Shown here piece by piece: positions 51,165 to 56,931 of a stretch of 64,000 bases of DNA. Location: positions 44,715-108,714 of the forward strand of contig JAGAPT010000022.1 in NCBI GenBank assembly GCA_017623115.1. Reading direction: 5' to 3'. The notes under the pieces are model-generated. The model did not search any database. It saw only the letters and a list, made by a program, of their open reading frames with translations, and had not been told where the DNA came from. Each line of letters starts with the position of its first letter. The first letter of the stretch is position 1. The stretch is from Alistipes sp. (GTDB taxonomy: Bacteria > Bacteroidota > Bacteroidia > Bacteroidales > Rikenellaceae). The position numbers were made by a program, and so were the translations under genes.

Positions 51165-52349
51165 ATGAAAGACTTTGTATTTTGCACCCCTACCGAGGTG
51201 GTATTCGGTAAAAATGCCGAATCGAAAATCGCATCCCGCATCCAGAAATATGGTGGCACAAAGGTGTTGCTGCACTACGGCGGTCGCAGTGCCGAGCAAT
51301 CGGGACTCCTGCCCCAAATCCGTGAGCACCTCGCCCAACACAACCTCCCGTTCATCGAGTTGGGTGGCGTGGTACCCAATCCGCGCCTTTCGTTGGTGCG
51401 TGAGGGTATCGACCTATGCCGCCGCGAGGGCATCGACTTCATCCTCGCCGTGGGTGGAGGCAGTGTCATCGACTCGGCCAAGGCAATTGCCTTCGGCACA
51501 CGCTATCCGAACGACGTCTGGGAGCTCTTCGACGGCAAGGGCAAGGTTACCGAGTGTCTTCCTCTCGGTACCGTACTGACCATTCCGGCAGCCGGCAGCG
51601 AGATGTCGGACGGTTGCGTCATCACCAACGAGGAGGGATGGCTCAAGCGCGGTTACTCGACCAACCTCGCACGCTGCCGCTTTGCCATCATGAACCCCGA
51701 ACGCACCTTCACGCTGCCTGCCTACCAGACAGCTTGCGGTGTAACGGATATCATGATGCATACCATGGAGCGTTACTTCTCACTCGAGGACGACATGACG
51801 GTTACAGATGCTATTGCCGAGGCGATTCTGCGCACGGTGATGGAGGCTGCACCGATTGTGCTGAACAATCCGAACGACTACCGCTGGCGTGCCCAAATCA
51901 TGTGGGCCGGTTCGCTGGCACACAACGACCTGACGGGTTGCGGCACGGTGGGCGATTGGGCAACCCACCACCTCGAACATGAGCTCAGTGCCATGTTCGA
52001 CGTGGCGCATGGTGCCGGACTGGCCGCCTTGTGGGGCAGCTGGGCACGCTATGTGATGTCGGTGCGCGTATCCCGCTTCGTGCGCTTTGCCGTCAATGTG
52101 ATGGGCGTCGAGAACGACTTCACCGACCCCGAAGGCACCGCCTTGCGCGGTATCGAGCGCATGGAGGCCTTCTATCGCTCGATTGGCATGCCGACCTCCA
52201 TCCCCGAACTCATCGGCCGCCCGGCCACCGAGGAGGAGATTCTGACCTTAGCCGACAAATGCTGCCGTCAGGACACGCACACCGAAGGAAACTTCAAGGT
52301 GCTCTATCGCAAAGAGATGGAAGCCGTCTACCGATTGGCCAATAAATAA
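51165..52349 (+). CDS. Iron-containing alcohol dehydrogenase (BDH/YqhD type)
   Basis: NAD(P)H-dependent, group III alcohol dehydrogenase for butanal-type or other aldehydes. 394 residues: nucleotide-binding VGGGSVIDSAKAIA, PAAGSEMSDGCV, and metal-site segments DIMMHTMERYF and DVAHGAGLAAL. The start at 51165 was taken because it follows the promoter and gives the family N-terminus FVFCTPTEVVFGK; the frame is open further upstream. Physiological substrate not determinable; detoxification or fermentation are both plausible. Confidence 0.93.
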   Translation: MKDFVFCTPTEVVFGKNAESKIASRIQKYGGTKVLLHYGGRSAEQSGLLPQIREHLAQHNLPFIELGGVVPNPRLSLVREGIDLCRREGIDFILAVGGGSVIDSAKAIAFGTRYPNDVWELFDGKGKVTECLPLGTVLTIPAAGSEMSDGCVITNEEGWLKRGYSTNLARCRFAIMNPERTFTLPAYQTACGVTDIMMHTMERYFSLEDDMTVTDAIAEAILRTVMEAAPIVLNNPNDYRWRAQIMWAGSLAHNDLTGCGTVGDWATHHLEHELSAMFDVAHGAGLAALWGSWARYVMSVRVSRFVRFAVNVMGVENDFTDPEGTALRGIERMEAFYRSIGMPTSIPELIGRPATEEEILTLADKCCRQDTHTEGNFKVLYRKEMEAVYRLANK

Positions 52350-52383
52350 CAAGAATTGACCCTTTAGGCAGCACTTTCTACAA

Positions 52384-52413
52384 AACGACCTCCATGCGGG
52401 GGTCGTTTTTTTA
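52384..52413 (+). terminator. Terminator of the alcohol dehydrogenase gene
   Basis: A stem of 7 bp plus inner pairs (52384-52390 with 52401-52407) followed by T7. Confidence 0.85.
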
Positions 52414-52653
52414 TTGCGCCTTTAGCCGGTCTATCCCCCTAATTGTCAGCAGGAAACAAAACTTTTTGGCAATTATAGCACTATTACAGCCCGACTTTTC
52501 AGCATATAAATTTGTCTAAACGCCTTGTTTATAGATAATTTTGCTATCTTTGCAATTTCAAAAGATAGACACACGGGTTAGGTTAAGGACTTTTAGGACA
52601 AAAAAATTACACTTTTTAACAATCAATTCATTACAAATTCAAACATTACAATT
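52414..52653 (+). promoter_or_regulatory. Upstream region and promoter of the TonB receptor operon
   Basis: A 240-bp AT-rich leader. A TTG -33 element (52525-52527) and -7 box TATCTTTG (52545-52552) are followed by a leader of about 95 nt. No inverted repeats or recombinase sites that would suggest an invertible promoter were seen, and no riboswitch. Confidence 0.7.
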
Positions 52654-55606
52654 ATGAAGCATCTATCCGCAAATTCCCGTATGACGGGTAGAGGTCTTCG
52701 TGCAGCAAGCCACCTGCTGTGTGGCCTCATGCTGACATTGGGTTGCATGGCTCCGACCGAGAGCCTGTGGGCCCAGACCTCGAACAGTAGAAGCATGCAA
52801 CAAGCAGCTCGCGCCGTGCAGGGTACGATTACTGCCGACTCGGAGCAGGGTGAGGTGATTCCCTACGCCGTTGTATCGTTCACCGACGTGCGTGCTACCA
52901 TCGCCGGCAAAGAGGGTGAGTACACCTTGGAGAACATCCAGCCGGGCACCTATGAGGTGGAGATTTCGTCGCTCGGTTACGAGACGCTGAAGACCACCGT
53001 CACGATTGTTGCCAGCAAGAGCAACTACGACTTCAAACTCAAACCGGCCAACTTCTACGTCGAGGATGTCGTCGTATCGGCTCGCGCCTCGTCGGTAGGT
53101 GCTGCAACCGCTTCGACCATCTCGCGTACGGCCATCGACCACTTGCAGGCCAACTCGCTGGCCGATGTCATGCAGCTCATCCCGGGTGCCGACATCACGA
53201 GCGACGTCTTCAAGCCCGATATGACCAGCATCAAGACCCCGACGATTCGTGGTGGTGCGGCTCTCGGTACGGCCATCATCATGGATGGTGCACCCATCTC
53301 GAACACGGCCAACTTGCAGGAGATGGCCGGTGCAGCAGGTGGTGAGGGTACCGGTACGCGTGCCATCGACCCGACGAGCGGTATTGACATGCGTACGATT
53401 ACGACCGACAACATCGAGTCGATTGAGGTCATCCGCGGTGTCGCTTCGGCCGAGTATGGCGATGCAGCCTCGGGTGCTGTGATCATCAACACGAAGGCCG
53501 GTCGTGAGCCCCTGGCCGTGCGTTTCAACACCAACCCCAACGTCTATTCGTTGGCTTTGAATCATGGTATCGCCCTGGGTCAGAAGAAGGGTTTCCTGAA
53601 CTATGGCGCCGACTACGCCTACTCGACCTTCGACCCGCGCGAGTCGTATGACACCTACCAGCGTGCCACGGCCCGTGTAGCCTACTCGAACACCTTCCTG
53701 CGTGGTCGCTTGAGCACGAACACCTCGCTCTCGTTCCTCCACACGAAGGATGAGGCCGAGCCGAACCCCGATGACGAGTACGACTACACGACCCACAACC
53801 AGAAGGACTGGGGCATCCGCTTCGCCACGAACGGTACCTTCACGCTCGGCAAGGGGGGGGGGTCAGAAGTGGTCTAAATCACTGAAATACAGCCTCTCGT
53901 TCAACTACACCGACCGTACGAGCTACTATGCCGACAAGGCCTCGAATGCTCGTTCTCCCTACACCAACGCCATGGTCGATGGCACGGTAATTTCCAGCAT
54001 CGCCGGTAAAGAGTTCACCGATATCGACGGCAACAAGATTACCAATTTCGACCCCTCGATGAGCGACCAGCGTGCTTGGGTGACCCAAGACACCTACGAC
54101 TACCACTACAACGTCTATGGTCAGGAGCTCAACACCTACGCCAAGCTCACCGCAAACTTTGCCGGTAACCTCGGCAGCACCCGCCACCGCATCGTCATTG
54201 GTGGCGAATTCCGCAGCGACGGTAACGTCGGCGATGGTAAGGTCTACGACGTAGACAACCCGCCCTACCGTCCTATCTCCTACAACTATGCATCGCGTCG
54301 CGAGCGCGCCTACAAGGACATCCCCTTCATGAACCAACTCTCGGCCTTCGCCGAGGAGACCTTCCGCATGAAGGTGCTTCAGCGTGAGCTGGAGGTGGTT
54401 GCCGGTGTGCGTTACGACCACCTGTTCGACTTCGGTGGTGAGTTCTCGCCCCGTTTCAACGCTTCGTATGAGCTGATTCCCGAGCGTCTGGCTATCCGCG
54501 GTGCCTTCGGTATTACGCACAAGGCCCCCTCGTTGGCCTTCGTGCACCCCGAAAATGCCTACTTCGACTACACGAACTTCGACAACTCCAACGCCTGGAA
54601 TATAAAGGGCGATGCCCAGAAGTTCCAGATCATCACGACCCACGCCTACGACATCAAGAACCACGACCTCGAGATGGCCAAGACCACCAAGCAGGAGATT
54701 GGCCTCGACTTCACGTGGAAGAAGATGCGTTTCAGCGTAACGGCCTATCGTGACGAGAGCCACAATGGTTACAGCTACGCCATCAATCCGGAGAATGTAA
54801 AGTGGGTTGATTACAAGCAGTATAAGATTAGCGGTTCGTACAACGCCGATGGTGTAACGCTGCCCGACCTGATGGTTGACGCCTCGAAGACGAAGAAGAT
54901 GTTCCTCGAGTACACCTCGCCGGCCAATACGGCTGCCTACGAGCGTCAGGGTATCGAGTTCGACCTCGACTTTGGTCGCGTCGATGCCATCCGCACCTCG
55001 TTCATCCTCAATGGTGAGTTCTACGACAACAAGAGCTGGGACGAGGGCTTCATGCTCTACAACTTCAAGAGCCAGGATCCGCATGTCGATCAGGGTATCT
55101 ACTCGTCGAAAATCAGCAATGGTATCCGTCGTTCGCAGAACCTGATTACGAACCTCATCGTAACCCACAACATCCCGAAGATCGGTTTCGTCATCACGAT
55201 GACGGCCAACGTCAACTGGCGTCAGAAGTCGTGGCGTACTTATGGTCTCAACCCCGACATTCCGTTGCAGTACCTCTCGATTGCCGATGGCAAAATCCAC
55301 GAGTTCGACCCCGCATGGGCCAATCCCGCTTCGGATCGCTACGCCGAGTTCCAGCAGATTCTCTACAACAAGGAGAATGGCGGCATGAACGACAAGGATT
55401 ACTTCATCGAGCCTTCGTATGATCCCGTGATGACCATCAACCTCAACCTGACGAAGCAGTTCCGCAATTTCGATGTGTCGTTCTTTGCGCACAACCTCTT
55501 CCGCTCGACTCCGGTGCAGGCTGTGAAGAAATACCCCGGTCAATACACCCGTCGCAACTCCGATGTCTACTTCTTCGGTTTGCAGCTGACGGCCAAGATT
55601 AAATAA
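52654..55606 (+). CDS. TonB-dependent receptor, out of frame at a G10 tract
   Basis: An outer-membrane receptor split in two frames. The first (52654-53877) holds a signal peptide (to about residue 40, SLWAQ), a carboxypeptidase-like domain (VQGTITADSE to FKLKP), and the plug (TPTIRGGAALGTAIIMDGAP, IEVIRGVASAEYGDAASGAVI). The second, from about 53860 to 55606, encodes the remaining beta strands and ends in LQLTAKIK. The frames join at G10 (53853-53862): with nine G the sequence reads LGKGGGQKWSKSLKYSLSF and gives 983 residues; with ten it stops at 53875-53877 after 407. It heads a four-gene operon. The imported ligand is unknown. A sequencing error is the main alternative. Confidence 0.9.
53853..53862 (+). 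repeat. G10 homopolymer, candidate phase-variation switch
   Basis: Ten consecutive G inside the receptor gene. Nine would keep the reading frame. Gly codons elsewhere in this gene are nearly all GGT or GGC, so three GGG in a row are out of keeping with the gene. Confidence 0.85.
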
Positions 55607-55626: not shown

Positions 55627-56931
55627 ATGAAAAGCATGATGAAATATCGCATCAGTGGGCTGATGGCCGCCTTGGCACTCCTCTGCACCTCGTGTATCGA
55701 CATGATGGAGGATGTGAAGGATGTCGAGAAGGTGCAGCCCGTGGAGGTTTCGTTCCAGGTGAACGCCACCACGCAGTTCGTACCCTTCGATGGTACGATT
55801 ACCCCCGACCCGAACTTCTCGACCGAGGGGCTCGAGGTAACCTTTACCAATTCGAAGACCTCGCAAATCTACAAAGGCACGACCGATGCCGAGGGTATCG
55901 TGACGATGAACGTGGACCCGGGTGTCTACAACATTGCCGCCTATGGTATTGCCGAGTTCAACGGCTCGGACTACCTGATTAATGGTGCGCTCAGCAGCAT
56001 CTCGCTCATTAAGAATATCACGCGCGAGGAGGCCAAGGAGAGCAAAGATCGCATCGTGACGCGCCCTGCGAAGGTGGGTTCGCTCATGATTAGCGAGATC
56101 TACTATTGTGGTAGCAAGCACCCCGATGATGGTACCTGGTTCCGCGACCAGTCCTACCGCATCTACAACAATGGTGATGAGGTGGAGTACCTCGATGGCG
56201 TCTGCTTTGCGCAAATCAATACGCAGAATCCCAGCGTAACGGTTCCGACCTACCCCGAAGAGGATGGTCTGGGCAACTTCGTTTATGCCATCCTCGTGTG
56301 GAAGATTCCGGGAAGCGGTACAGAGTATCCGTTGCAGCCGGGCGAGTCGGTGGTACTCGTACAGGAGGCTGCCGACCACACCGTCAGCAACAGTGCCTCG
56401 TTCGACAACTCGAAGGCTACCTGGGAGTGTTGGTCGGGCAACGACAGCCGTGACAACGGATTGGTTCCCAACATTCCTTACATCTATTGGCTTTCGCCCA
56501 ATAAGTCGCAGTGGAATTGCGGTGTTCAGGGTCCTGCCTTTGTCCTGTTCCGTGCGCCGAAGGAGGTAACCCTCAATGAAGATTACTACCGTAATGGTGG
56601 TCCGAATGTCATCCTGCAGACCAACGACAAGTATGGGGAGAACTTCACCGCCCGCATTCCGGCCGATTGGGTTTTGGATGCAGTAGAGGCACTCGCCAAC
56701 AAGGATCAGCTGGCTCGCAAGCGTATCCCGAGCTACATGGATGCCGGTGCTACCACGACCGGTAGCATCTATGCAACGACGGCTCTCTGCCGCAAGGTAG
56801 CCTCGACGCGCGCCGACGGCACGCCGATTTATCAGGACACGAACAACTCGACCAACGACTTCGAGCCGCAGACCGAGCTGATGCTGCGTCGTCACGGCGA
56901 GAAGGCTCCCGCTTGGAGCAACTGGCAATAG
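55627..56931 (+). CDS. DUF4876 lipoprotein
   Basis: A 434-residue lipoprotein of the Bacteroidota family DUF4876. The lipobox is LLCTSC (Cys23). A beta-sandwich-like N-terminal domain (QVNATTQFVPFDG to VYNIAAYG) is followed by a segment with SLMISEIYYCGSKHPDDGTWFRDQSY. Families of this type sit next to a TonB receptor and probably act as a surface partner or lid for ligand capture, as SusD does for SusC; this is inferred. It starts 20 bp after the receptor stop. Confidence 0.88.
   Translation: MKSMMKYRISGLMAALALLCTSCIDMMEDVKDVEKVQPVEVSFQVNATTQFVPFDGTITPDPNFSTEGLEVTFTNSKTSQIYKGTTDAEGIVTMNVDPGVYNIAAYGIAEFNGSDYLINGALSSISLIKNITREEAKESKDRIVTRPAKVGSLMISEIYYCGSKHPDDGTWFRDQSYRIYNNGDEVEYLDGVCFAQINTQNPSVTVPTYPEEDGLGNFVYAILVWKIPGSGTEYPLQPGESVVLVQEAADHTVSNSASFDNSKATWECWSGNDSRDNGLVPNIPYIYWLSPNKSQWNCGVQGPAFVLFRAPKEVTLNEDYYRNGGPNVILQTNDKYGENFTARIPADWVLDAVEALANKDQLARKRIPSYMDAGATTTGSIYATTALCRKVASTRADGTPIYQDTNNSTNDFEPQTELMLRRHGEKAPAWSNWQ

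What the first reader, a model, noticed from the sequence alone, without database searches (positions are those of the whole stretch)
53853..53862. G10 tract puts a TonB-dependent receptor out of frame: probable phase-variable switch
Seen: two overlapping frames cover one 983-residue receptor and join perfectly if one G is removed from a run of ten. The plug, carboxypeptidase-like domain and barrel show no other damage. GGG codons are otherwise avoided in this gene, so the run looks kept for a reason. Known: long G tracts switch surface proteins by slipped-strand mispairing in many bacteria, but in this phylum the well-known switches are invertible promoters. Inference: the receptor operon is OFF in the sequenced cell and can turn ON by losing one G. 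Transcriptional slippage could also give partial expression.
Basis: partly seen in the sequence, partly recalled or inferred. Interest (0 to 1): 0.8.

Follow-up and report, generated by a model that had tools for sequence, protein, structure and literature searches.

The report
Poly-G switch in a nutrient receptor
A run of ten Gs splits an outer-membrane receptor gene into two reading frames, and the same genome carries about forty such runs, several at surface-protein genes, so this bacterium, probably one of the Bacteroidales, may flip surface genes on and off by slippage at G runs, a trick better known from Campylobacter and Neisseria.

Summary
G10 lies at 53853-53862 between two frames of one TonB-dependent receptor (983 codons in phase). 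No other damage is visible; none of 68 Gly codons outside the tract is GGG. The run is not isolated: the assembly holds 40 runs of G9 or longer (34 G9, 4 G10, 2 G11) but only 10 G8. Seven lie inside TonB-receptor genes: five at nine in frame, two at ten out of frame. All six copies found of one lipoprotein-gene 5' end have a tract upstream (8 to 11 Gs). Receptor tracts recur in four other species of the genus. Slipped-strand phase variation is the best explanation. Corrections: the receptor is not SusC-type (its C-half resembles FepA-like receptors, in a DUF4876 operon that the literature links to iron limitation); the tract is a lineage-specific insertion absent from 28 of 28 orthologues; most tracts are intergenic, and receptor enrichment was seen in two of five species. 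No reads or isolates could be examined, so switching is unproved and an assembly miscount (true G9) stays open. The mechanism is known; a poly-G phasome in this phylum did not appear in the literature listings seen.

The parts
52525..52552 (+). promoter-like element (TTG, 17 nt, TATCTTTG) ahead of the receptor operon
   Evidence: read from the sequence; the Bacteroidetes consensus is recalled, not from a call; a sigma-70-type scan gives only a different weak site at 52512-52539, and fewer sites than shuffles (1 against a mean of 4.3)
52654..53877 (+). first frame: N-terminus, CarboxypepD_reg-like domain, TonB Plug domain; stop codon at 53875-53877, 12 nt after the tract
53853..53862 (+). G10 homopolymer, the frame junction
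53867..55606 (+). second frame: barrel half, in a different frame from the first; weak resemblance to FepA-type siderophore receptors
   Evidence: 28 orthologues run through this place in one frame
55627..56931 (+). DUF4876 gene, same operon by position
   Evidence: PF16215, E 1.7e-43; same order in L071 and L076
56950..58536 (+). DUF6850 gene, same operon by position
   Evidence: PF21012, E 3.7e-89; same order in L071 and L076
58537..61359 (+). M16-family peptidase gene directly behind; may belong to the operon
   Evidence: PF05193 and PF00675; membership of the transcript is inference

Best explanation
The G10 is a contingency tract. During replication the poly-G run gains or loses single Gs by slipped-strand mispairing, which moves the two halves of the receptor gene in and out of one frame. 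At nine Gs the halves agree and the full receptor can be made; at ten, as assembled, translation stops 12 nt after the tract and leaves a 407-residue fragment with the plug but no barrel. The receptor is one of a set: about 40 G9-centred tracts in this genome, seven in TonB-receptor genes (six SusC/RagA and this one, which is not SusC), and tracts (five of the 40 plus one G8) upstream of the six copies found of one lipoprotein gene, would give subpopulations with different receptor and lipoprotein repertoires. Shown: tract, frames, sister tracts, recurrence in other species. Inferred: slippage, reversibility, ON and OFF states in living cells, and the benefit (hedging over iron or glycan sources, or escape from phages and immunity that use these proteins).
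For: Runs of G9 and longer far above decay, peaked at nine. Of the 40 runs of G9+ (39 fetched, one in the window), 10 lie in frames called coding by a crude caller and 7 of those are TonB receptors, which make up about 4.0% of the genome (P about 9e-4 for 7 of 40, about 4e-8 for 7 of 10 coding). In this genome 5 of 5 receptor tracts at nine are in frame and 2 of 2 at ten (window, L038) are out of frame; in one of the five (L063) an ATG just behind the tract could serve as start, so its frame may not matter. Over four species, 19 of 22 receptor tracts are in frame against one third expected if frame did not matter. A homologous SusC pair in two species (L044, L117; 175 of 316 residues identical after the tract) carries C9 at the same signal-peptide place. 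All 6 copies found of the DUF6562-like 5' end have a tract upstream: G8, G9, G9, G10, G11, G11. Other tract-bearing coding genes in a three-species sample are mostly lipoprotein-like proteins, enzymes and regulators.
Against: No length variation was observed within one species: no reads, no isolates. The tract is absent from 28 of 28 orthologues, where the site never varies in length; even in frame it adds four residues there, so full function of the nine-G form is not assured. 30 of the 40 tracts are intergenic and many have no obvious target, for example between convergent gene ends. By coordinates, receptor enrichment is absent in G105 (4 of 51 listed runs, P 0.51; a fifth, L110, turned up later), G023 (2 of 64 listed, P 0.85) and G062 (0 of 48 listed; P 0.28 computed for 45), with truncated tract or Plug lists. 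Nine as the mode, also outside genes, points to a mutational equilibrium that needs no function.
Confidence: 0.6

Rival explanations
1. Assembly or sequencing miscount: the true tract is G9 and the receptor is intact. The run would still be slippage-prone, but no OFF state was caught.
For: A 60-contig assembly; 34 of its 40 long runs are exactly nine, and every in-frame receptor tract of this genome is nine.
Against: Six of 40 runs are longer than nine, so the assembly does not force nine; the lipoprotein set spans 8 to 11.
Confidence: 0.17
2. Mutational by-product: in this genus G runs drift to about nine by biased slippage; the frame break is an ordinary, possibly permanent loss of the receptor without selected switching.
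For: 30 of 40 tracts are intergenic; nine is the mode in and outside genes; all 61 genus genomes sampled have G9s, in very different numbers (1 to 153 9-mers); no receptor enrichment by coordinates in three of five species; no tract in 28 orthologues.
Against: Tracts inside genes favour receptors, lipoprotein-like proteins and regulators; 6 of 6 lipoprotein-gene copies found bear one; no second lesion is seen in the receptor (open frames; conserved blocks on both sides).
Confidence: 0.16
3. Slippage of RNA polymerase or the ribosome at G10 yields a fraction of full-length receptor, so the gene is dimmed rather than switched.
For: Long homopolymers can cause slippage (recalled); the downstream frame is open and intact.
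Against: No evidence either way was gathered; sister genes at nine are in frame without help.
Confidence: 0.04
4. The G9 runs are a chromosome-scale polar motif, perhaps one that guides replication or segregation, and those inside genes are bystanders.
For: In the G105 chromosome 47 of the 51 listed runs follow one strand up to 1.2 Mb and the other beyond, although the stretches held from the first part mostly lean to C on that strand.
Against: Only 57 of 135 9-mer rows of that genome were listed; no run of 7 or more was found in 60 kb of the related G085, which suggests fast turnover, unlike an essential motif.
Confidence: 0.03

Closest known systems
HmbR and HpuAB haemoglobin receptors of Neisseria meningitidis
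   Same: TonB-dependent iron-uptake systems switched by a poly-G tract in a reading frame (hmbR and hpuA; PMC3786947, abstract and passages seen).
   Different: Different phylum and receptor; here switching is inferred, and the tract is absent from orthologues.
Campylobacter poly-G/C phasome
   Same: Tens of genome-wide G/C tracts, coding and intergenic; PhasomeIt counts seven or more G or C (PMC6321876, passages); 29 loci of seven or more in C. jejuni NCTC11168 (PMC4965091, start of abstract in the listing).
   Different: Another phylum; coding targets here are SusC/TonB receptors and lipoprotein-like genes; 30 of 40 tracts are intergenic.
Invertase-switched SusC/SusD and capsule loci of Bacteroides
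   Same: Phase variation of outer-membrane proteins in the same phylum (PMC11868660, passages and a reference title).
   Different: DNA inversion rather than slippage; no convincing inverted repeat pair at this promoter.
DUF4876 / TonB-receptor loci of the iron stimulon (P. gingivalis PG1019-22, B. thetaiotaomicron BT3625-33)
   Same: DUF4876 gene listed with a TonB-dependent receptor among iron-depletion-induced loci (PMC10434189, passages); a DUF4876 gene is among hemin-responsive genes of P. gingivalis (PMC10470040, one passage).
   Different: Sequence orthology to those receptors was not tested; no tract is mentioned in the passages seen.

Membership tests
simple-sequence-repeat contingency locus (phase-variable gene) | repeat tract above the length used for phase variation (seven or more G/C in PhasomeIt) | tested here: met
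   G10; cut-off seen
simple-sequence-repeat contingency locus (phase-variable gene) | unit loss or gain shifts the frame of an otherwise intact gene | tested here: met
   two open frames meet at the tract; 28 orthologues run through the site in one frame
simple-sequence-repeat contingency locus (phase-variable gene) | several such tracts at surface genes of the same genome | tested here: met
   7 TonB-receptor genes and 6 copies of a lipoprotein gene
simple-sequence-repeat contingency locus (phase-variable gene) | tract kept in orthologues | tested here: not met
   0 of 28 orthologues of this receptor; one other receptor pair shares its tract. Supporting rather than strictly defining
simple-sequence-repeat contingency locus (phase-variable gene) | length polymorphism in the population and reversible switching | not testable with these tools
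   one genome per species, no reads
SusC/RagA family receptor | score above the TIGR04056 cut-off | tested here: not met
   N-terminal piece 69.5 bits against 368.25, C-terminal piece no match (pieces scored apart); the six sister receptors score 808.6 to 930.4
FepA-type TonB-dependent siderophore receptor | score above the family cut-off | tested here: not met
   best piece E 9e-13, 47.3 bits against 583: resemblance only, pieces scored apart
DUF4876 iron-stimulon locus | TonB receptor followed by a DUF4876 gene | tested here: met
   also in L071 and L076
DUF4876 iron-stimulon locus | induction by iron limitation | not testable with these tools
   no expression data
invertible-promoter switch of Bacteroidales | inverted repeats flanking the promoter | tested here: not met
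   52300-52900: one terminator-like hairpin and one imperfect 11-nt pair whose second arm lies inside the gene

The most novel reading that the evidence does not exclude
A whole genus, probably of gut Bacteroidales, carries a Campylobacter-like poly-G phasome centred on nine Gs. It switches the nutrient-receptor repertoire (SusC/RagA and an iron-type TonB receptor), some regulators and enzymes of those systems, and a multicopy lipoprotein family through upstream tracts, in a phylum whose described switches are DNA inversions.
Probability: 0.4. Interest if true: 0.78.

Novelty: new variant of a known kind. Interest (0 to 1): 0.58.

Why it matters
If true, these bacteria diversify what they import and display by a mutation-driven switch that inversion-finding software does not look for. 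Consensus assemblies would record such genes as broken or intact by accident of the majority length, so receptor repertoires inferred from metagenome-assembled genomes would be partly wrong. The seven receptor tracts and six lipoprotein tracts are ready-made loci to test in metagenomic reads.

Tried and rejected
Considered and rejected or left open: (1) Invertible promoter: no suitable repeats in 52300-52900. (2) Other tandem repeats in the gene: one imperfect 15-nt unit, 1.9 copies, at 54216-54244, not pursued. (3) SusC membership of this receptor: rejected on NCBIfam score. (4) RNA genes behind the contig-end tracts: of seven loci scanned only L045 gave a hit, a tRNA, and it lies before its tract. 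(5) Base composition as the cause of tract polarity in G105: not supported by the stretches held, which mostly lean to C on the + strand. (6) Conservation of the window tract: not found. (7) The G105 SusC tract family was sought in 180 genus genomes; only G085 and G168 also matched at E 1e-90, and at most 11 first-look candidates per genome were scored in the rows shown; G085 reads G5 at that place without length change. (8) Structure of an orthologous receptor: never run, machine busy. (9) The genus was not named: a PDB search with the threonyl-tRNA synthetase gave no clue; the order is inferred from the titles of the orthologue contigs. (10) Mismatch-repair genes were not searched.

Literature searches on homopolymer or poly-G phase variation in Bacteroidales, Bacteroidetes, Alistipes, Capnocytophaga, Porphyromonas or Flavobacterium. 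I saw the listings only (the top 6 to 20 rows; up to 250 papers held the terms), and no listed title or abstract start reports such a system. Most subscription papers and all bioRxiv preprints are missing from the library, so this is weak evidence of absence.

Full report
What is there. The tract is G10 at 53853-53862. The frame that starts at 52654 carries a CarboxypepD_reg-like domain and a TonB Plug domain; its stop codon is at 53875-53877, 12 nt past the tract. The frame that ends at 55606 carries the barrel half. The two frames differ by one position at the tract; arithmetic gives 983 codons in phase at nine Gs. Outside the tract, 0 of 68 Gly codons of the gene are GGG, against 26 of 264 in seven other window genes. 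The window holds no other G or C run of 7 or more.

Is it more than chance? By dinucleotide shuffles of the window alone, only weakly: 15 of 100 shuffles hold a G10. The genome answers better. G/C runs fall off as 5588, 1317, 284, 24 and 0 for lengths 3 to 7 in the 337 kb held (this sample is centred on long runs, which should matter little for lengths 3 to 7). The whole assembly (2,187,607 bases) has 10 runs of exactly eight (two of them near the first bases of a contig), 34 of nine, 4 of ten and 2 of eleven (counted). Extrapolated decay predicts 0.1 to 1.7 runs of nine.

Where the sister tracts lie. I fetched stretches around the 39 other runs of nine or more and around eight of the ten runs of eight. 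With a crude codon-based gene caller, 10 of the 40 runs of nine or more, the window's included, lie in predicted coding frames, 30 between genes. Seven of the ten are TonB-dependent receptors (and the window). The other three are a pectate-lyase-like ORF (below Pfam's cut-off), a histidine kinase where the tract may lie before the true start, and an AraC/XylR-like regulator. NCBIfam places six of the receptors in SusC/RagA, well above cut-off. The window receptor, scored in two pieces, is not of that family (69.5 bits against 368); its C-terminal half is nearest to FepA-type siderophore receptors (E 9e-13, far below the family cut-off). The assembly has 31 Plug matches, 30 over the cut-off, about 4.0% of the genome. 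Seven of 40 in 4.0% has P about 9e-4; seven of 10 coding, about 4e-8.

Frames. In this genome the five receptor tracts at nine (L031, L044, L050, L063, L065) are in frame and the two at ten (window, L038) are out of frame. In L038 the tract lies at the end of a signal peptide whose frame differs from that of the mature receptor. In L063 an ATG directly behind the tract precedes the hydrophobic part of the signal peptide, so that gene may not depend on its tract. In G013, G105 and G023 I found 15 more receptor genes with a tract by comparing tract and Plug coordinates (lists truncated) and fetched them. All 15 tracts are nine long; 14 are in frame, and one (L134, at a contig start) has its signal-peptide ATG out of frame with the mature part. 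Over the 22 receptors, 19 are in frame (P about 4e-7 against one third). Three more receptor genes with an in-frame tract appeared in the first loci of G105 and G107 (L110, L117, L120). Most tracts sit in the signal peptide or the N-terminal domain; those of the window, L065, L133, L140 and L142 lie further in.

Conservation. The window tract is not conserved. I compared the site in 28 of 28 orthologues: 15 named Bacteroidia/Bacteroidales contigs, eight of whose titles name a ruminant forestomach, and 13 from the same genus. All have 3 nt between the conserved blocks, in frame, with no G or C run over 3. The window has 16 nt there (53851-53866; the script prints 15 because it counts from 53851), that is 13 more. 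So the tract is an insertion in this lineage, at a place that otherwise does not vary in length. Within the genus only 14 of 180 genomes, this one included, have the receptor at E 1e-100. Elsewhere one homologous SusC pair (L044 here, L117 in G107; 175 of 316 identical residues after the tract) has C9 at the same signal-peptide position. For the G105 SusC L139, the relative in G085 reads G5 with no length change.

A second class. Six tracts lie upstream of near-identical 5' ends of a lipoprotein gene. A DNA search of the own genome with that 5' end found 6 copies, and all 6 have a tract (G8, G9, G9, G10, G11, G11) within about 160 nt before the start codon. Every copy runs to a contig end, as expected for a repeated gene. 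The longest fragment matches DUF6562 weakly (21.4 bits, cut-off 25). Several copies have a TAnnTTTG-like element between tract and start; that promoter motif is recalled.

The genus. All 61 genus genomes sampled have G9s, from 1 to 153 9-mers. In a draw of 119 genomes of the same order, 99 had a match, mostly at low counts, some high. By coordinates, receptor enrichment holds in G000 (7 of 40) and G013 (9 of 42, P about 3e-4) but not in G105 (4 of 51 listed), G023 (2 of 64 listed) or G062 (0 of 48 listed). Plug rows were truncated for the four relatives, tract rows for G105 and G023, and gene lengths were assumed, so these figures are rough lower bounds; one more G105 receptor (L110) turned up later. 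In a sample of 27 tracts from G105, G107 and G062, the first ones for which the tool laid loci, 10 were called coding. The genes were four TonB receptors, two lipoprotein-like proteins (DUF4929, BACON), a sulfatase, a histidine kinase, an ECF-type sigma factor and a glycosyltransferase, the last with an uncertain frame.

The operon. Behind the receptor come DUF4876, DUF6850 and an M16 peptidase. Receptor, DUF4876 and DUF6850 keep this order in L071 and L076, the two relatives checked. In passages of PMC10434189, loci with DUF4876 and a TonB receptor are listed among iron-depletion-induced genes of P. gingivalis (PG1019-22, 20.8- to 214.5-fold) and B. thetaiotaomicron (BT3631-33, 112- to 128-fold). 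A role in iron, heme or siderophore uptake is thus a fair inference, not a test.

How it most likely works. Replication slippage changes the tract by one G; the full receptor is possible at nine and not at ten. Shown here: tract, frames, sister tracts, recurrence. Inferred: slippage, reversibility, population mixture, benefit. The strongest doubts are that no within-species length variation could be seen, that a true G9 misread as ten cannot be excluded, and that a mutational equilibrium near nine would create many tracts without function. A working parallel is the meningococcal haemoglobin receptors, TonB-dependent systems with poly-G tracts in reading frames (PMC3786947). The genome-wide pattern is like the Campylobacter phasome (PMC6321876). 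A 2025 review of phase variation mentions, in the passages seen, invertase systems for Bacteroides and no repeat-based switch in this phylum (PMC11868660).

Noticed in passing
L039 (1-410), L042 (4937-5333), L045 (3501-3728), L053 (3501-4356), L066 (3501-3736), L069 (3001-3223): own-genome contig ends C9, C10, C13, C32, C60, C35: A DUF6562-like lipoprotein gene whose six copies found all have a G8 to G11 tract upstream; most copies share an upstream block resembling GATTATCAGT, and each runs to a contig end. Looks like phase-variable promoters.
   Followed up: partly
G105 contig C5 (3.79 Mb), 42 kb to 1.74 Mb: Listed G9+ runs are strand-polar: 34 of 37 on + before 1.2 Mb, 13 of 14 on - after it, although most stretches held from the first part lean to C on +. 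Replication-linked slippage bias or a polar chromosomal motif.
   Followed up: partly
own genome: 337 kb held, and the whole assembly for runs of eight or more: Run lengths are bimodal: 24 runs of six G or C and none of seven in 337 kb, but 34 of nine in the assembly; the mode at nine is also seen outside genes.
   Followed up: partly
L038:3485-6502: A second receptor gene (SusC/RagA) of this genome is out of frame at a ten-base tract, at the end of its signal peptide.
   Followed up: yes
L148-L150 (G085, 60 kb): No G or C run of 7 or more, although this species is related to the G9-rich G105: perhaps fast turnover of tracts.
   Followed up: no
L043:3480-3560 and L057:9440-9500: Some intergenic G9 runs look like the 5' arm of terminator-like hairpins just behind genes (read by eye).
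   Followed up: no
G062:C2:769062-769200: Seven G runs of 9 to 20 within 139 bases.
   Followed up: no
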